DNA from: Gracilaria domingensis
Lineage: Eukaryota; Rhodophyta; Florideophyceae; Gracilariales; Gracilariaceae
Direction of reading: 5' to 3'
Length of the DNA: 64,000 bases
NCBI GenBank assembly: GCA_022539475.1
Contig: VCMS01000215.1
Span: forward strand, 32,837-96,836
Shown piece after piece: positions 14,918-64,000 of this stretch. Positions within the stretch are counted from its first letter, which is position 1. Each line of letters begins with the position of its first letter. The notes under the pieces were generated by a model, which made no database searches, was not told the DNA's origin, and worked only from the letters and a program-made list of their open reading frames with translations. The position numbers and the translations under genes were made by a program.

Positions 14918-15680
14918 TGTAGTGCAACGCGATTTGCGGTATATGCTAGGTTTTGCCGTGAAGTCACTGCACCTGCATTGCAGTGGATGTCAGTGACGTC
15001 GGAAAGGTTGGGACAGCATTGCTGGATGGTGACACACGTGTATGGACGGTTGGCACCCAACTTTAGGATATTTTAGATATTTATTATTTAATTTAGTTAG
15101 CTCGGTTGCACACTTGAGAGTGGCACTCTACACTACTTAGTAGGTTGATCTCAATCCAGTGTTGGGGAAGTAAACAAAACAACCGAGTGTACGGCTCTAA
15201 TCATCCACCCTTAGTGTGTGGTAAACTCCATCCGGAGAACTCGCACCTCGTGTAGGGAGCATCATCGGCCTCGCGACAACTTAGACAGCACTGACGCTAT
15301 TGCGTGTTTCTTTTCGTGTGTGTTTCTCCCATTTCTGGTTCTATCGGACAGGTATTGCGTGTGCGCGTGCCGTTGCTCACCTTGATTTGGCTCGACTACT
15401 CACGTGGCTCCTTATCGGTACTGCGTGTCGTCGCCGCTCTCGTGAGCGTACTCTATTCACTACTGTGACATCATTTTTGACAGTGCCCTGTTTGTTCTAC
15501 CGCTGGACGCGTCTTCTTTGCCGCTCCGCTCTCTCCGACATCGGGAAGGGTTGACCCCGGAGTTACGCCCGGCCTAGCCGTGTCATTCCGCGAGGGCGCT
15601 CTAATGCTGTGCAGACCTACAAGAGGGAGGTCTGAACCGCCTTTGCGTGTCATTACCATCGCTGGGTTTTGCACAACAAT
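14918..15680 (+). repeat. 5' LTR of E2
   Basis: It starts TGTAGTGCAACG and ends ...CACAACAAT (the end is uncertain by 2 nt). A CACGTG box is at 15035-15040, with an AT-rich TATA-like patch at 15070-15095. It aligns with 35755-36508. Confidence 0.85.
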
Positions 15681-15698
15681 TGGTCTCCCGACTCAGAA
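15681..15698 (+). other. Primer binding site of E2
   Basis: TGGTCTCCCGACTCAGAA lies directly after the LTR. The same position in E3 and E5 holds TGGTCTCCTGACCTAGAA and TGGTCTCCCGACTTAGAA. TGG pairs with a tRNA CCA end. This is not the initiator-Met site; the tRNA is unidentified. Confidence 0.65.
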
Positions 15699-16114
15699 GT
15701 CGTTTTGATCCAGCAAGCGAGTTTTCTGATCAATTTCCAGTTTTTAGGCTCGTTCTGGTTGTCGAGAACACTCACAGTCGTAACTGGAATTCGTCGCCCA
15801 CTTGACATCGAGTTGGTTTTGTTTTCCCATTTTGGGTTGTTGTTTGGGCACGGTTCGTCACCAGTGGCACTACCTATTTCCGTAGTGTGTGGTTCCCGTC
15901 GGCACGGTTGTTGTCACCCCGTTTGGGTTTTGAACTTGTCCCAACAATCCGGTCGAACTACCTTAATTCCTTTTACGGCTGTTCCCGTGGGTACGGTTTG
16001 TTCGCCCGATTTGTCGGTTATCGTCACTCGTGTGAAGACGCTACACTCAGTAGAGGTTAATTTGTTTCATCGCTTGGTTGTTCCCAGTTCTCTGGTCTCT
16101 TTTCTCTGTCCCGG

Positions 16115-18204: not shown

Positions 18205-18271
18205 GTATGGGAGCCTCCAATGGAGAGGCGCCCGAGTCGTGGTCTACGCGACAGAGGCGTCACCGCCTCTC
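18195..18271 (+). promoter_or_regulatory. Candidate -1 ribosomal frameshift signal between gag and pol of E2
   Basis: GTTAAAC (18195-18201) is followed at once by the gag stop TGA. GAGAGGCG (18223-18230) can pair with CGCCTCTC (18264-18271), an 8-bp stem. pol lies in the -1 frame at this point. The equivalent site occurs in E3, E4 and E5. Confidence 0.55.
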
Positions 18272-21200
18272 TCCCAGGTCAGAATGCTTTCGAGGAAACA
18301 GACCGTTTTAGACGTGGACTCTACCACCATTGGTGTGTTGCATCGCCCGTGGATACGGCTCAGGGACAACCAGATCCCGGATCGAGTCATGGTAATGGCC
18401 AAGCGAAACTACAAGATTTTTGCTGACCTTGGCCTATCCACCGTGTATATTGTGCGTCATCTCTCTGTCTGGGATACAGGTGCTGGCCCCAACTTCATTG
18501 TTGAGTCGTTACTACGGCCGGAAATCCGTTGTCGAGTTCGTCAAGGACCCGTCATGGACGTGGCAGATGCTAACAATAACCGGTTACAAACGGCTGGAAT
18601 GGTGTCACTCATTGTCAGGATTGGTAACTGCATCGAGCAGGTTGCGTTCATTGTCTGCAAGACGCTCGCTGCCCCTGTTATTCTAGGGTGTGACTTCTGT
18701 GACAGATATGTCGAAGCCGTTAAGCGGCGTGCACGAGAGGTAACCATGGAAGATGGATCTACTGTGCCGATTATTCGCCGCTCTTTGCGAAGGCCCTCAG
18801 CAAAGCTGGTTCCGTTACCTGCCCCGTTGCAGGATTCTACAGCTCCGAAGGAGTCGCCAAAACTCCGTGTTGCACGGGCTATCGCCATTCCGCCGGAGTC
18901 CCAAGTATGGGTTGAAGTTACTGCTGCACCGCGTGGTTTACGGGTTGTTCAACCCCTGAACTCGCTCTATGAGAAGTATTAAGTCGCGCTGGCAAACGAA
19001 GTGGTACAGATTTCTGATGGTCACCCCTTCAGGGTTTTGTTGGCTAATTTTGGCAAGAAGCCCCAGCTGGTGAAGAACCAAGTAATTGGAACTGTACTAC
19101 CGCACCCGACGGCGCTTATCCCTACAAAGGTGACTGCCGCCGAGATGCTAGAAATTGCCGAAGAAACGGCTGTCGCCTCTCACTCTGAGGAGACGGATGG
19201 GGAATCATCGCGCTTGTCTGCGCCGAACCCGTCTCAGACGGATACTCCCACGAATGATTCTAAAGTTAGGATCATTCCTACGAGTTATGACACCCTTGAT
19301 CCTGTTAAGGAACTAGAGAAGTTGGATCTCGGTCATGTCCCGTATTCACACCCCGAGAAGCTGCGTGATATGTTGCGAGAGTTTACACCGATATGGGATG
19401 GTTCCCTCGGAGAGGTATCAACCACAGAACACCGGATTGACTTGCTTCCGGACACTAAGCCGATTGCTCAGCACCCTTACAGAGCAGGTCCAAAGGCTCG
19501 GAAAGAAGAGGAGTTTCAGGTCAAGAAGATGCTCCGAGCTGACGTGATAGAACCAGCGCAGTCGCCATGGGCATCCCCAGTTGTACTGGCTCCGAAACTA
19601 GATGGATCCTGGCGCTTTTGCATCGACTATCGTCGACTAAATGATGTCACTGTCAAGGACGTGTACCCCATACCTCGTATGGACGAGTACATTGACTCGC
19701 TTGGCGATGCTGCGGTGTTCTATACATTGGATGCGAACTGGGGTTACTGGCAAGTTCCAGTCAGGCCGGAAGACCGTGATAAAACCGCATTCGTCTGTCA
19801 TTCAGGTTTGTACTGCTTCAAGCGTATGACATTCGGGTTAACGAATGCTCCTGCTACTTTTCACCCTGCCTTGGACATCCTATTGGCTCGTTTCAAATGG
19901 AGGAGTTTTCTCGTTTATCTCGACGATATCATCGTCTTCTCCAATACTTTGGACGATCACCTTGAACATTTTCGGGAGATCATGGCCACTCTCCGCGACG
20001 CCGGTATCACACTCAAGTTGAAGAAATGCGAATTCTTCACTGAATCAGTCAAGTATCTGGGACATGTCATACGTCCTGGGCGATTGCTGATCGAGCAAGC
20101 TCGCGTAAAATCCCTCAAAGAGGCGAAGGCTCCTACTACGCAAACAGAGCTCCGCTCCTTTCTAGGGCTTTGAAACGTCTACAGACGGTTCATTCCTCGC
20201 TTCGCAAAGATCGCAGGGTCTCTCAACGAACTTCGCAAGAAGGGGCAATCACCAAAACTGGGATCCCTTGCTCCCACGCAAGTGGAAGCTTTCGACTCTC
20301 TCAAAGAAGCAGTTAACACGGCACCTGTGTCGTCGTTACCAAAGAACGGGTTGCCGTACACCGGGGATTCTGATTCGAGTGATTACCAGATTGGCTGTGC
20401 TCTCTTTCAGACTACACCGGAAGGGGAACGCAAACCAATTTGTTATTGGTCTCGCACGCTCAATGTTCACGAGCGAAATTACTCGGTATCCGAGAAGAAG
20501 TGTCTCGCCATGGTATGGGCTTTGCAGACGTTATGACCATATCTTATGGGTGTACACTTTACTGTCAATACGGATCACTCCGAATTGCGTTGGTTGATGT
20601 CAATCACGGAACCTTTCGGTCGCCTGAAGCGCTGGCGTCTTCGGTTAGCCGAGTTTGATTACGAAGTCACCTATAAGAAGGGTTCTCCAAACGCCCATGC
20701 GGATGCTCTTTCACGTCCAGGAACGGAAGGTGAGGCGCTACCCGTCGATAAAGATGACGAAGATATCCCCTGCTTTTTCCTGCAAGAGGGTGTAGAAGAC
20801 TACGAAATTGTCTCGGATGACATTTGTGATGACCTGCTCGTCGCAGACGGTGAAGAACCAGAATCTGGAACGTTTGTCCCCATCACTCCAAAGGATATGG
20901 TGCGGGAGCAGCAGGCAGACCCGTTCTGTACGAAGATACGTGCCCAAATCAACAGTGGGGCTAACATCCCGTTCGGGGTCAATACGCAAGGTTCCCTCGT
21001 TCGAGTGGTGCGTTCTTCTTCACAGATTGCAGTTCCTCACTCTTTGCGGTCAAGGGTACTTCATTTGTCACACTTCTCCAGGCTAGCCGCCCACCCTAGT
21101 GCTAGGACGTTGTACATGACGTTACGTCGGGATTTCTACTGGCCCGCATTAGCCTTGGATTGTTATACCACCGTCAAGGCGTGTACACACTGTGCCCGTG

Positions 21201-22930
21201 AGCGGGTTAAACTCCGCCGTCATGCGAAGAAACTAACCTTGTTGCCCGCACGAGCGCCTCTTGAGTTTATTGCCATCGACATAATCGGTGAGTTTTTGCG
21301 TACAGCCCGAGGAAATCCGTATCTACTCGTCATTACGAATCGATTCTCGAAGCTAGTCCGGAGAGTTCCGTTGAAGAAGATTACAGTACGCACAGTTGCG
21401 GAAGCATTTGTTCGCCATTGGGTGATGGTCTACGGTCCGCCTGTCAATCTACTATCTGACAACGGACCGCAGTTCACTGCGCGATTCTTCCAGGACGTCT
21501 GTCGTATACTCGACGTGAAGAACCTCTTCACGACGACGTATCATCGCCAATGTAATAGTCAAGTCGAACGGTTTAACCGTACACTACTCTCCGCATTGCG
21601 GGCTTGTACGGTTGAACACCCTAATACATGGGACCTTTTCACGGATGCGCTGACTTCTGCGTACATACGCAAGTTCACAGAATAACTCGGTTATCTCCCT
21701 TTGAGCTCGTGCCCTCAAAGACACCCTCGCTAGTTGCTGTTGACCCTTCAGCTAAGCTGGATACGCTACCGTCCGTACGGGATCACTACCTGCAATGGAA
21801 ACAGTGGTTAACTACCATAGTACCTGTTGCGTGGTCGTCAATGGCTAAAGCACAACTAGCTTATAAGCGGAACTTTGACGCCCGAGTAAGGAGACCACTG
21901 CCCGCCTACAGGTCGGACAAGTCGCTCTTGTGAGGAAAGAGTATTACAACCCGGAGAAGGAGAAGCGACACAAACTTTCCCCCATCGCCGATGGCCCCTA
22001 TCGCATTATCAGTGTGGATACAGACATTGCTGTATTGGAAGCTGTTGACGCTCATGAGCGCTTTTCCCGTGATCGCGTTGTTCAAGGTCCTACCGTTCAC
22101 ACGGAAGTCGTATTGGATACACAGCAAGAAGCTAGACCGGAGCAAAACCGAGAAACATCCTCGCAAAATGTTACATCCACTGTGGGACTCCTACACCCAA
22201 ATGGGGGCTCGCAGAGGTACCGATTATATCGTCGCAGACGGAATCTTTGGACTCTACACCTTTCGTAAAATCGCGCTTCAAATCATCTATCGTGCCATCA
22301 ACTGACGTGATGACTGCTCCCCGGAACGCTCCACCTAAGGAGGGGGAGGGGGAGTCACGCGTTGTCGCGGAAGAGGAATCACTGGTGTCGCCACCGTCGC
22401 AGGCATCACATGATTCACGGAGAAGTGAAGAGGTTGAGGCAGAATCGCGTCCGATTGTCACGAACACTACTGCCAGTGTGAAGGATCACCCGCTATTGCG
22501 TGTTAAAGTCACTAAAGACGTGCTACAGGCCACCGCTGTGGCACAGAACTCCACGAAAGATGCACAACCTTTCAACAGGGATCGTGAGCTTTCTGGAAGT
22601 GGTACAACGCATTCAGTGGACCCGCCGTCGTCTCAGGATACTGGTGACGCTCTCCCGTCAGGGAATTCGTCGCGAAAGCACGTTGAAACCCCTTCAGAAG
22701 GTCATGAAACAAAAGGTATTTACTCGAAGGATTTCGTCATCGATCACATTGTGGGACATACCCGACACCCAGAGGGGTATAGGCAGTACCAAGTCCGTTG
22801 GTTCGGGTATCCACCGTCCAAAGACACGGGTGAAGCGGTGGAACATTTACCGCGATCGAAGATCGTGCAGTATCACCGACGTACGGGTACCGCGCTCCCA
22901 CCTAACTTGCACCGGGCAATAGTCGGATAG
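18196..22930 (+). pseudogene. Pol of E2: protease, RT, RNase H, integrase, chromodomain
   Basis: Protease: DTGAGPNF at 18473, with VILGCDFCDRY at the flap end near 18680. RT: KDVYPIPRMDEYID near 19660, FGLTNAPATF near 19830 and the YLDDII catalytic box near 19917. RNase H: DSSDYQIGCALF near 20370 and NTDHSELRWL near 20570. Integrase: HLSHF and CTHC zinc site (21060-21195), then the core with AIDIIGEF, SDNGPQF and QVERFNR, an Asp/Asp/Glu triad. Chromodomain: 22735-22880, with YQVRWFGYP. Stops at 18980, 20171 and 20534 and frame shifts near 18240, 21680, 21930 and 22250 make it non-functional. Confidence 0.9.
22335..22349 (+). other. Internal polypurine-tract copy in E2 (integrase-chromodomain linker)
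   Basis: CTAAGGAGGGGGAGG, 14 of 15 identical to the E4 3' polypurine tract CTAAGGAGGGGGAGA, inside the coding frame (peptide PKEGEG). The equivalent sites in E3 and E4 are at 32161 and 49750. Confidence 0.6.
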
Positions 22931-24960: not shown

Positions 24961-25816
24961 TGTAGAGCAAAACGCCCTTTGTGGGGATGCACCGAGGTGT
25001 TTTTCATAGTCTGTTGATCCGTTACCGGCTTCGACGCCTCGTGTTATGAGAAGCTACTACGGTAGTGGCCCTATTTTGGGGTATGCCTAGGAAGGGTAGT
25101 GTTTCTGCACACGTGTGCTTAGTTGGCCCGATGCCGGGTGCGCCGTGGCAAGCCCGCCACGGTTTCACACGTGTAGGATGTTGGCCGGCAGCGCCGGATA
25201 GTTAGATATTTCTAGTTGATATTTTCAAGTGCCCTATATAGGTGGCGGCACTTGCCGCCACTGTACGGAAAGTAAACCTCAAGAAGGCTTCTGGCTCTGA
25301 CTTTCTTGCCGCTTTTGAACGGTCTTCGTCCCTAATCGGGCAAGCCGCCACAATTCCGGGCTAGTCATCCGACCTCTACCACTGAGGAGTTCTAGACCGT
25401 CGTCACGGCACCTTTTGTTGTTTCTTTGTTATTATTTTCGTCATACGGCTCTCGTTTCTCTGCCCTGTTCTACAGGTTTTTGCCCACTAGTCTCGGGACT
25501 TATTCCCGTTTATCACGAGTCAGTGCTCCGCAGTGCGGCTCGTTTGTTGATCCCCTGTCACTCCCTACCGTTAGGCTGGATACCTCCACTCGCTGTGGCT
25601 CGCCGGAACAACTGGATACTTACGCCGATTCTTCCGTTTCACCTCTGACAGCACGCTCAGATCGGGGCCACCCGGACTTACACCCGGCATCGCGCTGGCC
25701 CTATCAGAGGGTTCTACTGCTGCATCTACCCTTATAGAGAGCAGGTTTCGAACACCCTATCGGTGCGCTTTCCGCGACGCGGCTCTTGTTTGCACACTCG
25801 GTTGATTGCACCACAA
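24961..25816 (+). repeat. 5' LTR of E3
   Basis: It starts TGTAGAGCAAAACG and ends ...TTGCACCACAA. U3 has CACGTG boxes at 25109-25114 and 25168-25173, both within ACACGTGT, with GC-rich inverted repeats between and TATATA at 25235-25240 about 62 bp downstream. Confidence 0.93.
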
Positions 25817-34020: not shown

Positions 34021-34851
34021 TTACGCGCCAGACGGTCTAGCACCTGGGGTGCCCCCAATACTGGGAGCCCCGGAGAAGCGCTGTGCCGCTATCGCTTGCA
34101 ATTCCGACTCGTCGGTCACCGTATCGGGAACAGCCACTCCCGCGCCTCGAAGGAAGTCGCGAATGACCGCCGCTCGCGGAGTGAGAGAGGAACTGCCGCC
34201 CCCGGCGGATGCTACGTCCTGAGCCCACGCGCCGGTCGGAGCGGGAGCCGCTACAGCAGGTGGGACAACAACCACGACTTCGTCGTCGCCGTCCATAGCT
34301 TCGGGTTCTGGTTCGTTCTCCACGCCCGCTGGGCTTCCCTCATCCATGGGGCTACCTCCCTTGGCAGGGTCATCACCGTCATCGTCGACGTATACGAACC
34401 CACGCGGGTGCCCAAACGGGATATGACGCTCCTCTCGGCGGTGACACGCCGCCTCAGCGGGACTAATTATCTCCCAAATCCATGGGTCAAAGTATACGAA
34501 GTCGCCGGCATTGACGTTCCGTCCCGGAGAACGGTCCGACTGCCGACGAACCCCGTCGGAAACCTGACTGGCAGGCACCTCATTCCGGTCAATCTGGTCA
34601 ATGACGTCCACCAACGCGGTGGCTTTGCGCGCATTGCGGACCGAGCCCAGCACCTCGGAGAGATCCAGCGCTCGGATCGCTTGCCGAATGAGCTCCAGGA
34701 TGAATCAAACTCGGTATGAATCATATGCCTTGATGAGGAAGAAAGCCGCAACGCGGACGGTCCATTCTGTTCCCAGGATGCTCCACAAGCCGCGAGGCGA
34801 ATCGTTCATGAAGTCCGACGAAGTCGGTGTCTCAGCCTGAGAAGGGAGAGA
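34021..34851 (-). pseudogene. Antisense accessory gene of E3, truncated
   Basis: 210 open codons (34653-34021) continue upstream in the same frame to the LTR edge through one in-frame stop near 34693. The product aligns with residues about 330-617 of the E4 antisense protein. Examples are AYDSYRV against AYDNYRV, DVIDQID against DVIDGID, and DRSPG with AGDFVYFDPW against DRSPG with AGDFVYYDPW, then a Pro/Ala-rich tail. The N-terminal half is absent: the LTR begins where residue about 320 should be, so a deletion removed it. Confidence 0.8.
34838..34851 (+). other. 3' polypurine tract of E3
   Basis: CTGAGAAGGGAGAGA abuts the 3' LTR (TGTAGAG at 34852). It is a slightly altered form of CTAAGGAGGGGGAGA. 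Confidence 0.7.
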
Positions 34852-35707
34852 TGTAGAGCAAAACGCCCTTTGTGGGGATGCAACGAGGTGTTTCTCATAG
34901 TCTGTTGATCCGTTCCCGGCTTCGACACCTCATGTTATGAGAGGCAACTACGGTAGTGGCCCTATTTTGGGGTATGCCTAGGAAGGGTAGTGTTTCTGCA
35001 CACGTGTGCTTAGTTGGCCCGATGCCGGGTGCGCCGTGGCAAGCCTGCCACGGTTTCACACGTGTAGGATGTTGGCCGGCAGCGCCGGATAGTTAGATAT
35101 TTCTAGTTGATATTTTCAAGTGCCCTATATAGGTGGCGGCACTTGTCGCCACTGTACGGGAAGTTACCCTCAAGAAGGCTTCTGGCTCTGACTTTCTTGC
35201 CGCTTCTGAACGGTCTTCGTCCCTAATCGGGCAGGCCGCCACAAGTCCGGGCTAGTCATCCGACCTCTACCACTGAGGAGTTCTAGACCGTCGTCACGGC
35301 ACCTTTTGTTGTTTCTTTGTTATTATGTTCGTCATACGGCTCTCGTTTCTCTGCCTTGTTCTACAGGTTTTTGCCCACTAGTCTCGGGACTTATTCCTGT
35401 TTATCACAAGTCAGTGCTCCGCAGTGCGGCTCGTTTGTTGATCCCCTGTCACTTCTTACCGTTAGGCTGAATACCTCCACTCGCTGTGGCTCGCCGGAAC
35501 AACTGGATACTTACGCCGATTCTTCCGTTTCACCTCTGACAGCACGCTCAGATCGGGGCCACCCGGACTTACATCCGGTATCGCACTGTCCTTGTCAGAG
35601 AGTTTTACTGCTGCATCTACCCTTATAGAGAACAGATTTCGAAAACCCTGTCTGTGCGCTTTCCGCGACGCGGCTCTTGTTTGCCTACTCGTGGAATTGC
35701 ACCACAA
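34852..35707 (+). repeat. 3' LTR of E3
   Basis: 856 bp, the same length as the 5' LTR, with the ACACGTGT boxes and TATATA retained. It is followed by target duplication CTTCA. Confidence 0.93.
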
Positions 35708-35739
35708 CTTCAACCGTCATCAAGACGTTGTGTTTCCAG

Positions 35740-35754
35740 CTTAGGAGAGCGATA
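35740..35754 (+). other. Degraded 3' polypurine tract of E2
   Basis: CTTAGGAGAGCGATA lies immediately before TGTAGTGC, with 11 of 15 positions as in E4. It links the LTR at 35755 to E2. Confidence 0.55.
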
Positions 35755-36508
35755 TGTAGTGCAACGCAATTTGCGGTATATGCTCGCTTTTGCCGTGACG
35801 TCAGTGCAACTGCAGTGCAGGGGAGATGAGTGACGTCGGACAAGTTGGAACAGCATTGTTGGATGGTGACACACGTGTATGAACAGTTGGCACCCAACTT
35901 TAGGATATTTTAGATATTTATTAGAGTTAGCTTGGTTCTCCACTTGACAGTTGTACTCTACACTACTTAGTAGGTATATCTCAACCCAGTGTTGGGGAAG
36001 TAAATAAAACAACCGCCTTTTTGGCTCTGATCATCCACCCTTAGTGTGTGGCAAACTCTACTGGGTGAACTCGCACCTTGTGTAGGAAGCATCATCCGCC
36101 TTGCGACAACTTAGACAGCACTGACGCTATTGCGTCTTTCTTTTCGTGTGTGTATCTGTTCTTTCTGGTTCTACCGGACAGATATTGCGTGTGCGCGTAC
36201 CGTTGCTGACCTTGATTTGGCTCGATCACTCGCGTTGCTCCTTATTAGCACTGCGTTTTGTCGTCGCTCTTGTGAGCGTACTCTATTCACTGTTGTGAGG
36301 CTATTGTTGACAGTGCTGCGTTTTTTCTACGCCGAGACGCGTTTTCTTCGCGATTCTGCTCTCTTCAAAATCGGGAAGAGCTGACCCCAAAGAAACGCCC
36401 AGACTAGCCGTATAATCCCCTAACGGCGCTCTATTGCTGTGCAGCTCTACAAGAAGAAGGTCTTAACTGTCTTGGCGTGTCATTGCCATGGTTTCTTTTT
36501 GTACAAAT
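35755..36508 (+). repeat. 3' LTR of E2
   Basis: It aligns with 14918-15680 over its whole length, with clear divergence (roughly one in eight positions in the first 140 bases by eye). It ends before ATTAT, the target duplication. Confidence 0.85.
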
Positions 36509-38786: not shown

Positions 38787-39827
38787 TTATCGTTTGGCCT
38801 CGGAAACATAAAACACCCTGCGATTTTGCTCCTCCACGAACGACAGCGTGGGATTCTTCTCCACAACCGCACCCTCCGTTTTCTCGGCGTACAGCGCCCA
38901 GTGCAGCGGGTCGTCGATATCGAACAGCACCCTGCGTCCTGCCAGGTACATGCTGATAAACGAAAACACAGCGAACACCCACGCAGCGCTCAGCACATAG
39001 ATCAGAGACGTCGGCACGTCCGTCGCGTCAATCGTCTCCCTCACGAACGGGCAGTTCCCCCTTCTGCTCCCGAGAAACGCGCGCCGCCGAAGCTCGTATG
39101 GGTTGCCCACGTTCTGCGTGAACGCGTCGGCGGCGCGTAGCGCAAACGTGCGCAGCAGCCCCGTCGAGTCGAACAGCAGTTCGGTCTTGAGGTACGACAG
39201 GTCGATGTCAACCTGCCCGGACCGCAGCTGGTCTGCAAAACTTCTCCTGACTGATTCCGAGAAGAAGGTCATGTTTTGTTGCTGAAAGGCGAACACGCAG
39301 AAGTCGTCAGATACGCATCCCAGTTCGGCGCCGGATGTGGGCAGCGTGTGCGTCTCAGATAATGTGATGATATCCAGACGGTATGCCGGGTGTTTTGAAC
39401 ATCGCACGTCGCCGTTTTCCAGGCTGACGTTTCCAGTGCGTTGCAGGTTGACGTTTTGGCGCTGCACTTGACAGACGCCCTCTACGATGTCTGCTTCGCG
39501 AAACTGGCCTTGATCGCCCGTGGTTCTTGGGACGATGTCCATGATCACGCACGGGCTAGATTGAAATCGATCCTGTACGGCGGGGTCGGTGACAAACGAG
39601 ACGGCCAATTCGAGGCCGAAGAACAACAGTACTGAGATGATTGTTACCACCAATGAGATTCTTCGGTGACGACGAACGTCGATTGTCTTGAGTTTGCTAA
39701 GCTTTCGAAATTCGAAAATGTTGTGCGCTTTTTGTAGAGCGGCGAGGAACAGCACTTCAGCGAAGAGGGACACCGTTGTGATGATAAGGCTCACATATTG
39801 CGACTTTATCGGAACGACAGTCATTGT
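38787..39827 (-). CDS. Hypothetical three-pass membrane protein, about 346 aa
   Basis: The frame is open from 40004, but the Met near 39827 (MTVVPIKSQYVSLIITTV) is preferred because a membrane segment follows directly. Predicted helices: SLIITTVSLFAEVLFLAAL, then ISLVVTIISVLLFFGLELAV about 40 residues on, and near the C-terminus LIYVLSAAWVFAVFSFISM. Between helices 2 and 3 is a region of about 200 residues with six Cys (probably disulphide-bonded and outside the cytoplasm) and N-glycosylation sites NVSL and NMTF. There is no intron need and no stop. I know no family. It is the best host-gene candidate in the window. Confidence 0.6.
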   Translation of the reverse strand, partial: TMTVVPIKSQYVSLIITTVSLFAEVLFLAALQKAHNIFEFRKLSKLKTIDVRRHRRISLVVTIISVLLFFGLELAVSFVTDPAVQDRFQSSPCVIMDIVPRTTGDQGQFREADIVEGVCQVQRQNVNLQRTGNVSLENGDVRCSKHPAYRLDIITLSETHTLPTSGAELGCVSDDFCVFAFQQQNMTFFSESVRRSFADQLRSGQVDIDLSYLKTELLFDSTGLLRTFALRAADAFTQNVGNPYELRRRAFLGSRRGNCPFVRETIDATDVPTSLIYVLSAAWVFAVFSFISMYLAGRRVLFDIDDPLHWALYAEKTEGAVVEKNPTLSFVEEQNRRVFYVSEAKR

Positions 39828-40002
39828 GAGTTCAAGACATGGAAATAACCGGCAATGCCAATCCAACCGGGGGTGCTTTGGTACGTTTCTGGGGCTGAGT
39901 TTCTTCTTCTCTCTGGTTGGGCACCTGTTCTCTTCTCTGTATTTCGAATGGACAGGCCTTCCCAGCAGGGGAGGCCACCTAACGCACAAGTATGAGCGGA
40001 AC

Positions 40003-40215
40003 ATGGAAACTCTCGTTCGCCATCGGATCCGTGTGATCAGAGTGAAACTTGCTGAAAATCATGCACGATGGAGTTTGCAGCGCACGCAGGCAAAAAGCCG
40101 TCTTCGTTGGCTCGATCACTTTGACCAAACCCTCGTATCATACACGTACAACAACATCTCTCGCGAGGCGGTGAGGCGGCGCAAAAATTTTGCCGCCCTT
40201 GGAATGCGCGAATGA
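40003..40215 (+). CDS. Possible small basic protein, 70 aa, divergent from the membrane-protein gene
   Basis: Starts METLVRHRIRVIRVK. It is strongly basic and helical, with no recognised family. It starts about 180 bp from the neighbouring minus-strand ATG. The frame is also open upstream, antisense to the neighbour, so it may be chance. Confidence 0.25.
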   Translation: METLVRHRIRVIRVKLAENHARWSLQRTQAKSRLRWLDHFDQTLVSYTYNNISREAVRRRKNFAALGMRE

Positions 40216-41410: not shown

Positions 41411-42017
41411 GAAGTGAATAAAACAATGTATTGATAGATTCCATCGCGACCAAAAGTGTCATGACGTTTGCAGTAGAGCACACCGCGAGTTGCGTGTTTA
41501 CTTGTTCGAAGATAGCCAGGCGTATCGAACAGGTGTGGCCTCAGATAATTTGCAGAGTAGTGAAGGGGTACTGAATGAAAAGTATCATGCATCACAATAC
41601 TTTTCGGATGCTCCTCGCCGTCTCCAAAACGCCCACATCGAGGCTGCATCGAAGAATACAAACGCTCAATACAGGTTTCGAATGAAACGAAGCGTTTTAA
41701 ACCCGTTTTAAACGTATTTGAAACAAGGGACGTTCAAAACTCGTTCAAAACATTACAGTGAAAGCACATCACCGTAGAAGTGTAAGCCGCGCTGGCCGCG
41801 TGGACACGCCTCTCCAGCCAGCGCCACGCGCGCGCACGTGCGAGCGCGGACTGGTCTCCCGCACGCATCGATGTGTTGATCGAAGTTACGTTACTTGTCC
41901 TTATCGAGGAAAGTTGTTCAGATTGTACACGTATTGACGCGAATACGTCAGACACGTGTGAATATGAGCTTTGTGCGCACAGTGTAATTTTCAGTATTCC
42001 AAAATTCTTTCATAAGA
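41411..42017. other. Spacer without a supported gene
   Basis: Short ORFs only (41490-41711 plus, 41955-41734 minus). Near 41690-41755 there are repeats of the type CGTTTTAAAC and GTTCAAAAC. Nothing more can be supported. Confidence 0.5.
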
Positions 42018-42680
42018 TTGCTGGCAAGGCTTGCCAACGAAGTCAGGTGTACATCTTGTACACGTGCCGGCTGGCCGCTCTTCTTACAGCTCGAGCGCTG
42101 TATCACATGCCACTTGTGTTGCATCGTTGCCGGGGCGGCATTGGTGCGCCGTGGCCTCTCGCAAGCTGCGTCTGCGGACGTGTTGGTCCAAGCCGTCTCT
42201 GGTAGCGTGCCGCGCGCGATATTTGATCAGCCGGCAACCTCCTTTCCCACCTCCTCCGAGCGCGAGACACAGCGAGCCGCAGCGGCAGATGCCCCAGTCG
42301 CGCCCGTCCCGCGTTGCTCTCTGAAACGGCTCCCTATGCGCATTCCCGACCAGCCGCAGCCGCCGCCTCCAGTGGCGGCGGCCAAGCCACATTTTGAGCA
42401 AACCGTCGCGCCACCGGCCCACGCCGCTCCTCCCGAACACCCGCAAATCGCCCTCACCGAGCACGAACGTGGAGACGATGCGCTCTGGAGATACTTTCTT
42501 CTCGGGCTGCTGCTCGGAACCATCTTTGCCGAGTTGTCGTGCTGCTGCATGGACTGCGCCGACAAGTTGCGAATTGTGGGCATGAGGAGGACCTTCTACA
42601 AATGTGGCGCTGCTGTCGGAATTCTTCTAAACCTTTCAGCCCTGATTGCTTTAATTTTGTTCCTCCAAAACAGGATATAA
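42018..42680 (+). CDS. Hypothetical Pro-rich protein with two C-terminal membrane helices (5' end uncertain)
   Basis: The frame is open from 42018, but with a TTG there; the first ATG in frame is near 42339. The upstream part (CHLCCIVAGAALVRRGL) looks like a signal sequence, so an upstream exon with the true start is possible. It continues with a Pro/Ala-rich linker. The C-terminal 75 residues hold two helices (YFLLGLLLGTIFAELSCCC and AAVGILLNLSALIALILFL) around a Cys-rich loop. Family unknown. Together with its neighbours it suggests a host segment coding for surface or endomembrane proteins. Confidence 0.45.
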   Translation: MLARLANEVRCTSCTRAGWPLFLQLERCITCHLCCIVAGAALVRRGLSQAASADVLVQAVSGSVPRAIFDQPATSFPTSSERETQRAAAADAPVAPVPRCSLKRLPMRIPDQPQPPPPVAAAKPHFEQTVAPPAHAAPPEHPQIALTEHERGDDALWRYFLLGLLLGTIFAELSCCCMDCADKLRIVGMRRTFYKCGAAVGILLNLSALIALILFLQNRI

Positions 42681-45031: not shown

Positions 45032-46175
45032 TGTAGAGCAAATCTAGAAATAGGGATGATCCACAGGATGTCTGAATCCTGTTTCCTATATGGGCAGTCT
45101 CAGTGACACAGCCCTCTGTCCGTGCTTAAGCGAGAAGCAAGCCGGGTGTCAGACCGGAGACCGTGACCCGCTATACCTACAAAGAAGAGATCGAGAAAGG
45201 ATGTGGGGCAAACTCGGAAGAGTGAAACCCACCAGACTGTCCAAAGGTCCGCTCTCGTGAGAGATGGCAGACCAGTGACAGAGCCCTCTGTACCACCGTA
45301 ACTCGGTTGTAAGGCCGAAGTGGCAACTGGCTATACCTACAGAGGTGATAGGCCACGTGGTGATGAAACGATGAGAAACTCCAGAGATGGGGTGGTATCG
45401 GCAACGATGAAACACGACCAACGACAGGTGTAGTCCCGAGAGGGAAAGCAACAGAAAACAACAACCAAACAACACCCACACGCGACGGGTAGGGCCTCCT
45501 CGGCACTGTGCCCGGAGCGGGGCGAGATCCTCCAACGGTAATGCACGGGTCTCCGTAAACACGGCAAAACTCTATACAGAGTCGGATCACTTCGTAATCT
45601 AGTCCTATACCTCCTCGGTACGACCCTCAGGTCCCGACATCAACGACAGATGTTCTTCAAAGGTACCGAGAGGGTAGGACCACCGTAACCAGACGTGGCT
45701 ATACTCGCGAGAGTGATAACCCAAGTAGGCGGTTGGCGCCAGAGCCTCACTCGTGTAGAGTCCCCTCAGGAGAGCGCTACTCGACAAAGAGTTCACTTAG
45801 AAGTGCTCGGGTTGACTTTACAAAGGTGCTCGCGACGACGAGGTCGAGCTCACCTAAGTAGGTCTAAACTAACTATGTACACGTGGTGCACACCCGCAGG
45901 GGTCCGTACACGTGGCTAGCCCAGTGTCAGGCACCTCAGGTGCACTACCTATTGTCCCGTAATATGCACACACACGGTGGTGTAGTACACGCGTCCACCT
46001 AGCGGTATTGGCCAGCAATGGCAACCCTGATTACAGGTAACTGTGGGAAAGCCATTCCAAAAGTAACCGCCAAAATTGGGTCCAACTCATAACTCTTCCA
46101 GTGCATCCTCGTATCACTCCCCTGAGTATATGAGACGCATCATCCTGATAACCACGCAAAATGCGTTGCTCTACA
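45032..46175 (-). repeat. 3' LTR of E4
   Basis: 1144 bp with palindromic ends: TGTAGAGCAA at 45032 and TTGCTCTACA at 46175 are reverse complements. CACGTG boxes are at 45880-45885 and 45909-45914. It aligns with the solo LTR at 7790-8787. Orientation is set by pol and by the polypurine tract at the 46176 side. Confidence 0.88.
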
Positions 46176-46190
46176 TCTCCCCCTCCTTAG
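46176..46190 (-). other. 3' polypurine tract of E4
   Basis: On the minus strand, CTAAGGAGGGGGAGA directly precedes LTR start TGTAGAGC. It primes plus-strand DNA synthesis in LTR elements and is the reference for the internal copies. Confidence 0.8.
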
Positions 46191-46254: not shown

Positions 46255-48108
46255 ATGAGCGGTACCAACTCCTCGGTTTCTATACCTCGCAAGCGCGATA
46301 CACACTCAAGCGAACAGAGTATTCAAGTATCCGAACTCGATCACAGTACATCATCTGTCATTCCGATGAACCCGAATCAGTTTCCTCATCACCCGACGGG
46401 TCAGGCGAGCGCGTCGAACTACCCTCAGCCGGGTTCTGCGACGGCTCCACTGCCTCAGTCTCAACCGATGGTCCGGGTGAACGTTCCGTTATGGAATTCA
46501 GCGCAAGCGATGCCGCTGATGGCGAACCAAGCTGGTTGGATATCGAGGGAATCTCTCGCAGTACGCGATCCACTCCGTGATGGGTTTGCGTTCAGCCGTG
46601 CACCGTGGTTTCATCCGGTAGCTGTTAACGATGACACTCTCCTGGAGTCGTATGCCGAAAACGGCTTCCTACCGGGCGGTCTGCCGTTAGCGGTAGTGCA
46701 ATCTCCAGAATGGAAAGTTCGTATAGCGATCGACCCGATGCTCCTCCGGTACGATACCCGCGAGGGTGAGAACCTGAACACCGCGCGCGCGGAACACGCG
46801 AAGTTGGCGTACAAGAGACTCAGTCGAGTGCACCTCGAGCACCTGGTTCCACCGTCATATGGGTTCGATACTCCATTCTACCGTACTTTCGGTGAAGTCC
46901 GATATGGAGACAACTTGGCGACGTTCGACCATGCGCGGTACGCTGGCGATGGCCCGACCACATCGAGGTTGATGTTGTGCTGGAATCGGCCCATACTCCG
47001 AGCGGAGTTCCGTTATCTTCGCAAGAACGCTTCCCAGGGTGGGTTCGTCAACCGCATTCGGTTTGAGCGGAAAGCTCGTTCCCGTCATGGGTATCTGATT
47101 CCGTACCCGAATATCGAGACCGAGAGGTACAGACCGCAGGCCTTTGTTGGACGGTTCCCTCCTCTACCAGATTGGTGGCGTGATGTGGAGGTACCCAAAG
47201 GGTGTTTTGCAGAACTGCCTCCGTGCTTGAGTTACATCGGCTCCCGATTGATCAACGATCCGCGTTCAGGATGGTGGGGTCTCGTAGCCGGCGAGTGGGC
47301 GGCACGCGTAGCAGCGTTTCTCCTCTGGGAGGCTTACGACAACTACCGTGTTTGGTATATTCCGCCGATGCTTCGCAGCATTATCCGCTCGCTGGATTTG
47401 CACACTCCCTTGGGGTCCGAAGAGAACGTGGATGAGATCCATTACATCTTGGATGTTATCGATGGAATCGATTGGGAAACGGTGCCCCGTTCGCAACGCG
47501 GGAAAGGTCCTCGTCGTCACTACGACCGCTCACCCGGTAGGAGACATCCCACCGCAGGAGATTTCGTGTATTACGACCCATGGGAGGGTACGATGACGAC
47601 TAGCGCGTATGCCGAGTGGGCAGCGAACCAGCCACGGTCGATTCCAGACAGTCACCCGGTTGGGTTCATGTTCAGTGACAACTGGGTCGCCCCAGTAGAT
47701 CTGGATGATCCGAACATGGATACCGGTGGAGAGGCGGCGGGAGCAATCGTCGAGATGGACCAGGAGTTGGTGAACGACCTACCGGCGGCGAATCAGGTGT
47801 TGCACGCCAGCGGCGGGGTACCCCAGGCTCCTGTGGGTTGGAATGTTCCGACTCAAGCGAGTGTTTCGGTGGTGGGTCCGGCCCCTGTAGCGGCTACCAT
47901 TCCTTCGGTCCTTCCGGCCCCGACAGCTCCGGTCGCTCCGGGAGATTCTCCGGCGAACATCGCGATGTTGCGCGCCAGTCTCCAGAACGCTGGAATTATC
48001 GTGCCCGATCATCTCACCACTATGGCAGGGATACTGGCTTACGCCGTTCCGCACCCTTCGCAGGGTCTCTCCGGTAGCGGCGGTGCCGGTCCCTCATCGG
48101 GGGTGTAA
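46255..48108 (+). CDS. Antisense accessory gene of E4, intact, 617 aa, unknown family
   Basis: It is encoded opposite to pol, convergent with it, between pol and the 3' LTR. The frame is open from 46219 (TTG); the first ATG is 46255 (MSGTNSSVSIPRKR), 80 bp from the LTR edge. Residues 1-70 are Ser/Pro/Gln-rich and disordered. 75-350 is a Trp/Tyr/Arg-rich globular region (GFAFSRAPWFHPV, FDTPFYRTFGEVRYG). 338-380 has GWWGLVAGEWAARVAAFLL; 420-443 holds the best-conserved block, DRSPG and AGDFVYYDPW. 500-617 is Pro/Ala/Val-rich. There are no membrane helix, zinc site or enzyme motif. E3 and E5 carry relatives at the same place. Function unknown; a role for the element in the antisense RNA strand is inference. 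Confidence 0.85.
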   Translation: MSGTNSSVSIPRKRDTHSSEQSIQVSELDHSTSSVIPMNPNQFPHHPTGQASASNYPQPGSATAPLPQSQPMVRVNVPLWNSAQAMPLMANQAGWISRESLAVRDPLRDGFAFSRAPWFHPVAVNDDTLLESYAENGFLPGGLPLAVVQSPEWKVRIAIDPMLLRYDTREGENLNTARAEHAKLAYKRLSRVHLEHLVPPSYGFDTPFYRTFGEVRYGDNLATFDHARYAGDGPTTSRLMLCWNRPILRAEFRYLRKNASQGGFVNRIRFERKARSRHGYLIPYPNIETERYRPQAFVGRFPPLPDWWRDVEVPKGCFAELPPCLSYIGSRLINDPRSGWWGLVAGEWAARVAAFLLWEAYDNYRVWYIPPMLRSIIRSLDLHTPLGSEENVDEIHYILDVIDGIDWETVPRSQRGKGPRRHYDRSPGRRHPTAGDFVYYDPWEGTMTTSAYAEWAANQPRSIPDSHPVGFMFSDNWVAPVDLDDPNMDTGGEAAGAIVEMDQELVNDLPAANQVLHASGGVPQAPVGWNVPTQASVSVVGPAPVAATIPSVLPAPTAPVAPGDSPANIAMLRASLQNAGIIVPDHLTTMAGILAYAVPHPSQGLSGSGGAGPSSGV

Positions 48109-48477: not shown

Positions 48478-49749
48478 TTATCCCACCTGGGCTTGGTCCA
48501 GGTTGGACGGCAAGGCTGACCGAGTGCGACGGTGGTATGAAACGATCTTCGACCTAGGTAGGTGCTCGACCGGCTCCATGGTGTCCTCCTCGGCGGAGTA
48601 GCCATACCATCGCACTTGGTACAGTACCGTCCCATCGGGGTCTACAACATGACGTACGATACGTTCGATCACGTATTCCTGCGGGTACACCACGGTGTTT
48701 GACTGCTCTCCTTCACCCATTGTGGTTTCGTACCTTCGAGGGTGGCGAGGTGGTGGCCGGTTAACCTCTAGAGGGGTTCCTCTTGGACTTAACCAGTCAC
48801 GACTCACTAGGAGTTCCTCGCTGCGCGACAACTACAACTTACGCCAGGAGCGTCTCATCTTCAACCTGAAAGGTTCTTCTTGAAGTACTCTCCTTCTTCA
48901 GTCTGACGAGTTTCGGCTCGTTTTGGTTGAGCTTCCAACCGTCCAACGGTAGCTTCGGGATTCTGAGCTCCCTCTTGCTATCCAGAAGGATCGTCCGTGC
49001 GACGGAGAACGGGTAGGGTCTCGCTCGTGTGCCATGGAGGCGGATTGACCAATCACGGTGCGTATCGCGGCCTTCTGGTTGGCCAGGCGATGGCAAGTGT
49101 GAGCCAGGAGTTATCCTAACAGGTGTCCGTTCGCCTACGGATGGCGACCGTACATCGTTCACCGTGCGCGTGTGGTACTCGCGCACGCGACTTACTGTCA
49201 GCAGTTCCCCGCGTCGGCGGTGCTTTCCATACGTCACCACGTCACACAACGTGTTACTCTCCACTTGGGTGTGTCATGAGTCCTCTGCCACGCGGCGTGG
49301 GTGCACCATCGACGGTTTCCAAACTCGTACTTCGTACTTCACCTTTCCAAGGGTGTTTTCCCCAAATAATACGCGGGTAAGTACGACTTCTCGTTTCCTC
49401 ATACCACGGCGTGGTTAACACCGGTCGGTAACATTGAGCTGATCTACCGCTTGCGGTTCTGCGTTCTCCGGGAAGCCCGGGTCTACAGATACTGTCTTCT
49501 CCGCTCTGCGGGTGGTGACCTCACTCAGTTGTGGTGTTCCCAACGGGGTTATGTTATACACAGCGGTGTGTACCCCCTGGGTGGGTCGTGTCGTTTCCAG
49601 CGCATTGCTCAACGAACTCGACGGAGTATCACCACGAGGTACAGCGCCTCGGCGCACCACAACGCTATCGGTAGAGACCGCGAGATTGGTTGCGGTACCT
49701 TGCGACACAGCGTGACCGTGCGACGCCGGTGTAACGGGTTCCGTACTTT

Positions 49750-49764: not shown

Positions 49765-52700
49765 GCGGTGGCACGGGAGCCACGACGTCCGGTGGGGGAT
49801 CAACTCTAGTTGAGTTTTCCTCTTCGACTCCCGCAACGGGTTGTGCTACCCGCGTGGGTGATTCTGACTTCGGTAGATCCGATAAGCCGCGATCAGGGCG
49901 GAGAGTCGCAGGGCGCGAAGATACGACCTGTTCGTCCCCTGTAGCTTCACCCAGTTGGGTGTTAACGTGAACGTAGGGTGGTGGGGCCAGCGCGACACGG
50001 TCTAACGATATCCGTTCGTGGAGATTATTGATATCCAATACTACGGTATCGTCCGTGTCCTTCCGCGATAGGCGAGAGCTTGTGGCGCCGTTCCTTCTAC
50101 GGATTATAGTATTCTTTGCGGAGAAATACCATATCGTCTGGTTTGACCTTTGGTAATGGGGTCTTAACCTTCGCATCGAAGTTGCGCTTATAAGCGGCCT
50201 GCGCCTTATCCATCGCTGTGCGAGCGACCGGTACCATTTTGGTTAACCAACCCTTCCAAGCGTTCCTGTATAACCCAACAGACGGGTACGTAGAAAGCGT
50301 TTCTTGAGCCTCGATTGCAACCGGTGGCGGTACTCTTGACAATATCAACTCAAAAGGTGCTAGCTTCGTTACCCGGTGGACTTGGGTGTTGTACGCATAC
50401 GTAATAGCGTCCGTATACAAATCCCAATTCTTAGGATGATCTGCCACATAAGATCTTAATGCATTCAGCATGGTACGGTTAAATCGTTCTACCTGACCAT
50501 TTGTTTGGGGGTGGTAGGTGGCCGTAAATAGATTCTTGACACTCAAGATCCGACAGACGTCCTGGAAAAACTTCGACGTGAACTGTGAACCGTTATCTGA
50601 TAATAGATGAACCGGTGGACCGTACACATAGACCCAGTGGGTGACAAAAGCTTGTGCAACCACGGTGGCCGTAATCCGTTTCAGCGGGACTGTCCGTACT
50701 AACTTAGAGAACCGATCGGTGATAACCCAAAGGTATCGATTACCTCTTGCGGTTCTGATCAAATCACCTAAGATATCGATAGCGATAAACTCCAAAGGAG
50801 ACCGTGCTGGGAACAGCGTTAACTTCTTCGAGTACTTACGAAGTTTCACGTTATTCTTAGCGCACTCGGTGCAAGAGCGTCGCACTGCGTAGCAGTCCAA
50901 TGCCATTGACGGCCAGTAAAAATCCCTACGCAGGGTCAAGTATAGTTTTCGACCTCCTGGGTGGGCTCCTACCTTCACATAGTGTGTCATGGCCAACACA
51001 CGGTTTTGCAGCGAGTATGGGACCACAATTTGGGTATACGCTTCAACCAACCTAACCAGGTACCCCTGATCGCTAACCTGAAAAGGTATACGATCTCCTC
51101 CATTGAGACGAGCGCGAATTCGCGTACAAAACTCATCCGTTTGCTGTTCTCGGATCATCTCCTCGGGAGTGATGGGTACAAAAGATCCAGTCAAGGGATC
51201 CAACTTCTCAGAAGTGAGTAGGATGTCGTCACAGATGTCATCCGACAAAGATTCGACCCAACCTGCTTGTTCTTCCACCATAAAGCATGGTATGTCCAGA
51301 TCGTCAACTGGTGCCGCTTCTGCATTTGTTCCCAAGCAGGAGAGTGCATCAGCCTGCAGATTCAACGTTCCTTTTTTGTACGTAACTGTGAAATCGAACT
51401 CCGATAACCTCAAGCGCCAACGCATCAAGCGTCCTGATGGTTCCGAGATTTCCATGAGCCATCGGAGAGATGAGTGGTCCGTATGTACCGTAAAATGGTT
51501 GCCCATAAGATATGGCCTCAGTGTAGTTAGAGCCCATACAACGGCTAAGCACTCTTTCTCCGAGACTGAGTAGTTACGTTCGTGTACGTTCAAGGATCGC
51601 GACCAGTATCCAATTGGATGTCTCACGCCGTCTTCCGTGACCTGAAACAGGGCGCAACCAACCTGGTGTGCACTGGCGTCAGTGTCTACTTCGACTGGAA
51701 GTCCTAGCTTAGGCAAAGCCAAGATTGGCGGTGACGTTACTGCGTCGATTAATGCCGAGAAGACAGACGCTTCCGCGTCGCCTAGGGGTTCCAGTTGAAC
51801 TGGTTGACCTTTTCTCAAGAGGTGGCTAAGGGGGGTCGCAATATCTGCGAAGTTCGGGACAAAACGCCGATATACATTACAAAGACCCAGAAAACTGCGG
51901 AGTTCCGTTTGTGTCGTAGGGTGTTTCGCTTCCTTCGGCGACTTCACGCGAACTGCGTCAACTGAGAGCTGTCCAGGTCGAATGATATGCCCTAGGTATT
52001 TGACAGAATCTGTGAAGAACTCGCACTTCTTGAGTTTCAGCGTAATGCCCGCGTCCCTGAGGACTCTCATGACGTCCCGGACGTGTGTTAAGTGGTCATC
52101 AAGGTTATCGGAGAACACGATGATATCGTCAAGATACACCAAGCAGGTATTCCACTTGAATCGAGCCAAGAGGATATCGATAGCACGTTGAAACGTAGCC
52201 GGTGCGTTGGTTAATCCGAACGGCATTCGTTTAAACCGGTACAAACCTTGGTGGCACACAAAAGCAGTTTTGTCCTTATCCTTTTCACGGATCGGAACTT
52301 GCCAGTATCCCCAATTGGCATCCAAGGCGGTGAACACTGTAGCACTCCCAAGCGAGTCAATGTATTCGTCCATCCTGGGTATGGGATAAACGTCTTTGAC
52401 GGTGACCGAATTTAGACGACGGTAATCAATACAGAATCGCCATGATCCGTCCGCTTTTGGAACTAGCACCACGGGTGAGGCCCAAGCGGATTGAGCCGCC
52501 TCTATGACGCCAGCGCGTAACATCTTCTCAACCTGAGATTGCTCTTCTTCCCTAGCTTTGGGACCAGCCCGGTATGAGTGTTGGGAAATGGGGCTAGTAC
52601 CTGGAAGTAGGTCAATACGGTGTTCCGTGATTCCAATTGTCCTGAGGGATCCATCCCACATGGGTGTGAACTCCCTCAACATTTCTCTTAGCTTACCTCT

Positions 52701-52861
52701 ATGAGATTCAGGTACATGATCAAAATTCAACTGTTCCAATTCCTTGACAGGGTCTGTATCTTCCGTTCCTGGTGGCAAAGCTTTACCCTCGGTGGGTGCC
52801 AGCGATTCGGTAACTTCACTCGCCGGGGTAACCGATGCGGTAAAAGCGGTTTCCGCTGATC

Positions 52862-52876
52862 CCTCCCCCTCCTTAG
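52862..52876 (-). other. Internal polypurine-tract copy 1 in E4 (protease-RT linker)
   Basis: On the minus strand CTAAGGAGGGGGAGG, coding AKEGEG. It is identical to copy 2 of the same element 3.1 kb away. Confidence 0.6.
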
Positions 52877-53791
52877 CATCGGTTATACCGAGAACATCCG
52901 CAACGGGTATCTTCGTCGGTAGGATAGCAGCAGGGTGTGGGAGAGTGGTACCAAGGATTTGGTTTATAGCTAACCACTGTCGGGTTGTGCCAAAGTTGGC
53001 GACCAAAACTCTGAATGGTTTGTCGGGTTCCACCGAGATTACTCCGTTCGCCAAAGCGAGTTGCTTCTGATCATACAATGATGGCAATGGTTGTACCACA
53101 CGTAGACCAGACTGCTTAGTAGTTATGGTGACCCAAACTTGGGATTGCGCAGGGATTGCGATGGCATGAGCCACATGGAGCTTAGATGATACCGGGTCGA
53201 CGGTTGGAACTTCCTGTGCAGCAGGGAGCGGGACGCGCTTGCGTGTAGCTCTCTTTAGCGGTTTCCTTACAATCGGTATTTCGGAACCATCATCTATGGT
53301 AACAACTCGAGCTCGAGGTCGAATCGCTTCAACAAAACGATCACAAAAGTCACAACCGAGTATCACCGGTGCGGCAATGCTTTTGCAAACATGAAATCCA
53401 CTTTAACCATACAGGTTCCTAATCGTACCATGAGAGGTATGTACCCGAGAGTACGCAACGGGTTATTGTTGGCATCCGCGATGTCCAAACCTGGACCATG
53501 ACGAATTTCATCCCGTAGCGCGGGTGCCACCAACTCAAGGTGAATCAGGTTCGGTGCAGCTCCTGTATCCAACACAGACAACTGTCGAACCATGAACTGG
53601 TTAGACAAGCCAAGATCGGCATAAACTTTGTAGTTTCTCTTGGCCATCACAAGAACTCTTTCCGGAATACGGAGATTACGGGACCGTATCCACGGACGAC
53701 GTAGAACCGAAAGGTGTTCTGAGCTCACGTCAGTTGTAGCCGCTATCCTTGAAAGGATTCTAACAGCTGGGGAGCGAAGCTGTGACGCCTC

Positions 53792-53857: not shown

Positions 53858-53934
53858 TGAACGGGGTGTGGAGCAACGGCTTTCCGCTATCGGATGCATC
53901 ACGGTTCTCATAATGAGATGGTACTGATGGCCGG
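53858..53934 (-). pseudogene. Gag 3' end of E4 (fragment)
   Basis: Only the last 25 or so codons before the slippery site remain, with a stop in the gag frame, before the junction with E5. The sequence GGCCATCA near 53930 resembles GGTCATCA in the E5 gag tail. Confidence 0.45.
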
Positions 53935-63169: not shown

Positions 63170-64000
63170 CTAACCGACAGTGGAGGGAGCGCACCGCTTC
63201 CCGCGTTGGGATTCTGTGAGAAATACCTCTGCTCGCGAGGCGCTAGCCCTGCATGGTGTTACGCGCCGGAGGGATTGGCCACGCACTGAGCCGGAGACGG
63301 CCCGAAGGATAGCGCCAAGCTTCCGGCCCCAAATTGTGCCGGTTGTGCGGTGGGAGCTATCAAGGACCATGCTCCTCAGGGGCAAAGGAGCGCCTGCCTT
63401 CCGTGGGGAAACGCAGTTGCGTCGTCCGGTATCGCTGATATGCCAGTGAGTTGGAGCCCCTGTTCCCGCAACGACGGCCGATTCATCCAATATCCACATG
63501 GATCATGCGGACATACCGAGGGCCACGGCATAGTCCTCACGATACAAACCCAACTGGATGACCTACCCGATAGCGCGGGAAGTGCGGCCATTCGCGGTTC
63601 GCTTGCTCTGAGAAATGAGCTTGGCGCTCCCACGCGTCGTAGTACACCAGACCCGGAACGGGTGAAATCGCCCCGGTGGTATCGGTCTGCGGGAAAAACG
63701 CTGTCGTGCCTGTCAGCTGCCAAGCTACGGGAATCTCCGGTCCCCAATCGACCCTGCGCGATTTACATCCAACAACTCCCACACCGTCTATCCTGGTTAG
63801 CCTCGGAACCCAAGGGGTAGGTAAGCGAGATCAATCCTTCTGAAGGAGCCACCTTCAAAATTTGGCAGGAACTACCACAAGCGGAAAAGGTTTAGTGATC
63901 AGAACATCCCCACAGGAGGTGAACCGCGACGCTCGGCAGCCCACTCGGCGAGTACCACGACCAATAGCCCGACTCGGGAATTGCTATCAACCGAGAGCCG
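63170..64000 (-). pseudogene. Antisense accessory gene of E5, decayed, continues past the window
   Basis: Scattered frames on the minus strand match the E4 antisense protein in order. Near 63980 is ESGYWSW (E4: RSGWWGL), near 63955 LAEWAAE (GEWAARV), near 63810 YPLGSEANQD (TPLGSEENVD), and near 63640 GLVYYDAW and later GHPVGFVS (GDFVYYDPW and SHPVGFMF). Many stops. The N-terminal half must lie beyond 64000. Confidence 0.7.

What the first reader, a model, noticed from the sequence alone, without database searches (positions are those of the whole stretch)
46255..48108. A new antisense gene shared by a Ty3 retrotransposon family
E4 carries an intact 617-codon ORF on the strand opposite to pol, between pol and the 3' LTR. 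The same gene is in E3 (34851-34021, N-terminus lost) and E5 (from beyond 64000 to about 63170), always at this place and in this direction, and perhaps as a trace in E2. Shared anchors are DRSPG plus AGDFVY[YF]DPW and AYD[NS]YRV. Antisense ORFs at this site are known in plant Tat-lineage elements, and antisense transcription from the 3' LTR is known in HTLV-1 (HBZ). I recognise no family for this protein. A virus-like regulator or RNA-binding role is only a guess.
Basis: partly seen in the sequence, partly recalled or inferred. Interest (0 to 1): 0.92.

Follow-up and report, generated by a model that had tools for sequence, protein, structure and literature searches.

The report
Antisense gene in seaweed retrotransposons
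Jumping genes of a red seaweed carry a long extra gene that is written backwards next to their end; its protein resembles no described family that we searched, and selection has kept it working in several groups of these elements.

Summary
The finding is real. The 617-codon + strand ORF at 46255-48108 lies antisense to E4 pol, between its chromodomain and 3' LTR, starting 80 bp inside the LTR. At least 219 places in this 77.9 Mb genome match it, broken copies included, in four groups (A=E4, B=E3, C, D) whose cores are 42-50% identical between groups. In 44 of 45 loci examined a chromodomain lies on the opposite strand past its 3' end. In seven group C comparisons dN/dS is 0.22-0.28 over the frame and 0.15-0.18 over the core: a protein under purifying selection. 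The three named relatives (of 15) come from Gracilariaceae red algae. No match holds in Pfam (Retand's Transposase_28 included), PHROGs, NCBIfam or PDB sequences. AlphaFold2 gives a confident, mostly helical core (pLDDT 89.8, pTM 0.89) without a significant Foldseek match. The layout is known (Grande, RIRE2, Retand; Boty brtn); the protein family and its red-algal chromodomain elements appear new. Best reading: an accessory protein of the element, made from an antisense mRNA started in the 3' LTR and acting in trans on the element's own cycle. Coding and constraint are shown; promoter, expression and action are inferred.

The parts
46255..48108 (+). antisense ORF (aORF) of E4, 617 codons, group A
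   Evidence: dN/dS
46522..47664 (+). conserved core of the aORF protein (residues 90-470)
   Evidence: conserved columns; AlphaFold2 pLDDT 89.8, pTM 0.89; core dN/dS 0.15-0.18 in seven group C comparisons
45202..46175 (-). 3' LTR of E4 (974 bp, TG..CA)
   Evidence: paired LTRs of the C62 copy, 99.4% identical, 5-bp target duplication ATTGA read by eye
46176..46190 (-). polypurine tract (seen as its complement); same place in one example each of groups A, B, D and two of C
48478..48831 (-). chromodomain at the end of E4 pol; the 3' ends of the two frames face each other
   Evidence: Pfam PF00385 E 3.3e-10; 376 bp from the aORF
50097..53402 (-). E4 pol frame (RT, RNase H, integrase)
34021..34851 (-). 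aORF remnant of E3 (group B), N-terminal ~315 residues deleted at the LTR edge, one stop
24961..25816 (+). 5' LTR of E3
   Evidence: 95.2% identical to its 3' LTR
34852..35707 (+). 3' LTR of E3
63540..64000 (-). decayed aORF trace of E5 at the contig end
   Evidence: profile E 0.003 and 0.12

Best explanation
The ORF is an accessory gene of a group of chromodomain-bearing Ty3 retrotransposons in a red alga. It codes for a protein with a disordered N-terminus, a ~375-residue mostly helical core rich in arginine and tryptophan, an acidic proline-rich linker and a short helical C-terminus. Shown: the frame, its fixed place and direction in four groups, and purifying selection on the protein. Inferred: an mRNA starts on the antisense strand inside the 3' LTR (the ATG is only 80 bp inside the LTR) and ends in the gap before the chromodomain; the protein then acts in trans on the element's own cycle, most likely in the nucleus by binding element nucleic acid or a host chromatin or silencing factor, so that its level is set apart from that of gag-pol.
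For: Same place and direction: chromodomain on the opposite strand past the 3' end in 44 of 45 loci examined (the window's own included; miss L026), and 67 of 71 group A rows pair with a listed chromodomain row at 374-410 bp. Six of six sampled chromodomain copies without a listed aORF carry it at 98.5-98.8% DNA identity with frameshifts. Constraint: dN/dS 0.22-0.28 (frame) and 0.15-0.18 (core) in seven group C comparisons; other frames are at about 1 or above, or hold many stops. Groups differ to 42-50% identity in the core yet keep open frames of about 590-720 codons. Confident fold prediction. An intact copy has 99.4% identical LTRs and a 5-bp duplication, so the gene travels with recently inserted elements. 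Plant parallels: Grande's antisense protein is nuclear and transcribed from its own promoter (PMC7264820, parts 1 and 2 of 3 read).
Against: No expression data. A simple TATA pattern was not found on either strand between the outer LTR edge and the ATG. No match to a nucleic-acid-binding family, and the core is nearly neutral (net +2). Many copies are broken (20 of 71 group A rows and 26 of 42 group C rows hold stops; frameshifts come on top), as expected of dead insertions but also of a dispensable gene. Among young group C copies dN is often near or above dS, and constraint on the C-terminal tail is not shown (five of seven intervals reach above 1).
Confidence: 0.6

Rival explanations
1. Anti-silencing factor: the protein counters the host's small-RNA or chromatin silencing of the element.
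For: Faster divergence between groups than RT (core 42-50% identity against RT 78-85%) fits an arms race; a separate antisense transcript would allow early expression.
Against: The core is under strong constraint within group C (dN/dS 0.15-0.18); no similarity to any known family was found.
Confidence: 0.15
2. The antisense RNA, not the protein, is what matters (double-stranded RNA or interference with the sense transcript); the ORF is a by-product.
For: Antisense transcripts without coding capacity are known from other elements (PMC7264820).
Against: Selection acts on the protein frame: dN/dS 0.22-0.28, substitutions concentrated at third positions, long open frames in four groups.
Confidence: 0.06
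3. A host gene captured once by an element and now hitch-hiking, with no role for the element.
For: No related viral or transposon protein is known; origin unexplained; 4 of 71 group A rows have no chromodomain listed beside them (not looked into).
Against: Four diverged groups keep it at one place and orientation; groups B and C are closest to Gracilariopsis chorda proteins (core 79% and 66-67%), so it is probably old. A stand-alone host copy was not looked for.
Confidence: 0.07
4. A structural or particle protein (envelope-like or second capsid-like) made from an antisense mRNA.
For: The position between pol and 3' LTR is that of env; the core is a globular helical domain.
Against: No PDB or viral fold match; no transmembrane region is apparent by eye (not computed).
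Confidence: 0.12

Closest known systems
Antisense additional ORFs of plant Ty3 elements (Grande gene23, RIRE2, Retand ORF4)
   Same: [quoted passage not shown] function unknown (PMC7264820, parts 1 and 2 of 3 read; PMC11963269, passages).
   Different: Retand is a non-chromovirus lineage and 97% of its clusters carry the Transposase_28 domain (PMC11963269 passages); here a chromodomain is present and Transposase_28 matched 0 of 18 members. Host is a red alga.
brtn, antisense gene of Boty retrotransposons in Botrytis
   Same: An antisense additional gene between pol and 3' LTR of a Ty3 element outside plants (PMC7264820; title of Zhao 2011 seen in the reference list of PMC8365987).
   Different: The brtn sequence was not held or compared; none of the three named hits in the protein searches is fungal.
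HBZ of HTLV-1
   Same: Antisense gene next to the 3' LTR.
   Different: HBZ is a bZIP regulator (recalled); no bZIP match here. An analogy of layout only.
[quoted passage not shown]
   Same: Putative antisense mRNA from the 3' LTR (PMC10974842, listing and passages).
   Different: 67-codon ORF against 617 codons here.

Membership tests
Chromovirus-type Ty3 retrotransposon (host element) | RT, RNase H and integrase followed by a chromodomain | tested here: met
   Pfam hits RVT_1, RT_RNaseH, rve, Chromo
Chromovirus-type Ty3 retrotransposon (host element) | paired LTRs, target-site duplication, polypurine tract | tested here: met
   one copy tested (C62): LTRs 99.4% identical, ATTGA duplication; PPT in five examples from four groups
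Chromovirus-type Ty3 retrotransposon (host element) | RT phylogeny within chromoviruses | not tested
   no reference RT set was built
[quoted passage not shown]
   44 of 45 loci; 6 of 6 sampled further copies
Antisense additional ORF between pol and 3' LTR (aORF-3R, a layout class) | transcribed in antisense | not testable with these tools
   no RNA data
Retand/Tat antisense protein (TRP28, PF04195) | Transposase_28 domain | tested here: not met
   0 of 18 members in hmmscan at E up to 10 (HMMER's filters drop most matches above about 0.1); the genome search with PF04195 is uninformative because its controls rang nowhere
Retand/Tat antisense protein (TRP28, PF04195) | host element without chromodomain | tested here: not met
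   Chromo domain present
brtn of Boty | sequence homology to brtn | not tested
   no brtn sequence held
HBZ-like bZIP regulator | bZIP domain | tested here: not met
   no such Pfam match in 18 members

The most novel reading that the evidence does not exclude
The core is a new protein fold that red-algal chromodomain elements have carried since before this alga and Gracilariopsis chorda parted, and that works as a trans-acting control or anti-silencing factor expressed in antisense from the 3' LTR: an independent invention of the HBZ/gene23 strategy with an unrelated protein.
Probability: 0.35. Interest if true: 0.8.

Novelty: new variant of a known kind. Interest (0 to 1): 0.62.

Why it matters
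[quoted passage not shown] Here is one in red algae with a long, confidently folded and strongly conserved protein, more than two hundred matching places in one genome, and relatives in another named species. That makes the open question 'what do these antisense genes do for the element' testable with a protein that can be expressed and solved.

Tried and rejected

Caveats on counts: group A dN/dS uses the 8 best matches, which biases it low; group B used 4 sequences and group D 3. The seven group C comparisons (of 29 possible against L033) were chosen as more diverged ones, share one partner and six of them form one similarly distant set, so they are not independent. Group C as a whole gave pooled pN/pS 0.37, median 0.36 over 430 pairs, 95.6% below 1. 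The comparison of A with C has saturated dS. E4 pol against four copies gave 0.35-0.58, a rough yardstick. RT of C2 could not be read (no hit in L056), and RT of D rests on 119 residues.

Full report
What is there. The + strand holds an ORF from the ATG at 46255 to the stop ending at 48108, 617 codons, within a 660-codon open frame that starts inside the LTR. E4's own genes are on the minus strand: pol 50097-53402 with RT, RNase H and integrase, then a chromodomain at 48478-48831. The ORF therefore lies antisense between the end of pol and the 3' LTR. The LTR is 45202-46175; next to it, at 46176-46190, is the complement of a polypurine tract, and the ATG is 80 bp inside the LTR. E4 loses similarity to the four other copies read there at 53866, so it lacks gag and a 5' LTR. 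A relative on contig C62 has two 974-bp LTRs, 99.4% identical, about 12 kb from end to end, flanked by the 5-bp duplication ATTGA.

How widespread. The window's genome has 77.9 Mb in 680 contigs. With the E4 protein 71 places were scored, 91-100% identical, 51 of 71 without a stop (group A). With P0007, a Gracilariopsis chorda protein, 42 places of a second group (C; 16 of 42 without a stop) and 29 of a third (D, 44-48% identical to P0007; 25 of 29) came up. With P0002, also from G. chorda, 77 further main places appeared (B; 57 of 77 without a stop in the main match), the group of E3 (E3 is 84% identical to L047 over 279 residues, and its RT 97% over 170 residues to that of the same element). 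That is 219 rows in four groups. Only the best candidates are scored, so these are lower bounds; the 'no stop' figures do not count frameshifts or missing ends.

Same place, same direction. In 44 of 45 loci examined (the window's own copy among them; the miss is L026) a chromodomain lies on the opposite strand past the 3' end of the ORF (the loci are 8 of group A, 30 of C, 4 of B and 3 of D). Of 71 group A rows, 63 pair with one of the 105 best chromodomain rows and four more with the other 45 rows: 67 of 71, at 374-410 bp; the four left over were not looked into. Of the 105 chromodomain rows 42 had no listed ORF; six of these were sampled and all six carry it at 98.5-98.8% DNA identity, with frameshifts. 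So the gene is a regular part of the element. One example each of A, B and D and two of C have the LTR edge and the PPT just before the ORF.

E2, E3, E5. E3 keeps two collinear pieces; its first ~315 residues are missing exactly at the LTR edge and one stop splits the rest. E5 has a decayed trace (profile E 0.003 and 0.12) and ends with the contig. E2 has none, although its RT is closest to that of group D (90% over 118 residues).

Selection. Codon counts (Nei-Gojobori, own script) give dN/dS 0.22-0.28 for the whole frame in seven group C comparisons against L033, with bootstrap intervals between 0.16 and 0.38. The core alone gives 0.15-0.18, the N-terminus 0.28-0.49 and the C-tail 0.43-0.65; five of the seven C-tail intervals reach above 1, so constraint there is not shown. 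The seven share L033 and are not independent. All 30 group C sequences give pooled pN/pS 0.37. Groups A, B and D give 0.21, 0.05 and 0.25 on 8, 4 and 3 sequences; the group A loci were the best matches, which biases them low. Reading the same alignments in the other five frames gives values of about 1 to 2, except for the -1 frame (0.34-0.48), which holds 13-26 stops. E4 pol against four copies gives 0.35-0.58, so the aORF protein looks about as constrained as pol, on a rough comparison. Young group C copies show dN near or above dS against L033 (for example L019, L020, L041), as freely decaying insertions would.

Relatives. Three searches of 5.8 billion proteins gave 15 proteins in all (in the last two only the 7993 candidates sharing most words were scored). 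Three have names: two of Gracilariopsis chorda and a partial one of Agarophyton chilense, both species in the family Gracilariaceae; twelve are unnamed. The window's genome is therefore probably from a gracilariacean red alga (inference). Groups B and C are nearest to G. chorda proteins (B core 79% to P0002, C core 66-67% to P0007), which suggests that they are older than the split of the two species or moved between them.

Mechanism. Shown: a protein-coding gene, kept by selection, in a fixed antisense position in four groups. Inferred: the mRNA starts in the 3' LTR on the antisense strand, because the ATG is so close to the LTR; the protein acts in trans on the element's cycle, probably in the nucleus. 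Plant parallels support this by analogy: Grande's protein is nuclear and has its own antisense promoter (PMC7264820, parts 1 and 2 of 3 read). Rivals are anti-silencing, a structural protein, an RNA-level effect and a hitch-hiking captured gene; the last two are disfavoured by constraint and spread.

Known or new. Antisense ORFs at this site are known in plants and in Boty (PMC7264820; PMC11963269 passages; PMC8365987 passages). Two features of the Retand type, Transposase_28 and a host element without chromodomain, were tested and not met. brtn was not compared. The layout is known; a paper on this protein family or on such red-algal elements was not seen in the listings of eight searches. 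Hence: new variant of a known kind.

Noticed in passing
window 7804-8787: LTR of the E4 family, 81% identical to the E4 LTR, seemingly solo.
   Followed up: no
window 35680-35775: A second LTR/PPT edge just beyond E3's 3' LTR, similar to the E4 edge region: perhaps remains of another element.
   Followed up: partly
window 15636-22930: E2 has RT and chromodomain of this element group (RT nearest to group D) but no trace of the antisense gene, and no LTR pair was found in the flanks compared.
   Followed up: partly
window 5024-5665: Copia-type gag (Retrotran_gag_2, E 1.7e-16).
   Followed up: no
window 10957-11694: ORF with a sub-threshold BED zinc finger (E 0.084), perhaps a hAT-type remnant (the hAT idea is recalled).
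   Followed up: no
window 38787-40058 and 41988-42680: Two longer ORFs without Pfam match, possibly host genes.
   Followed up: no
L057-L062: Six of six sampled group A copies carry the antisense ORF with frameshifts at high DNA identity; some may be assembly errors.
   Followed up: partly
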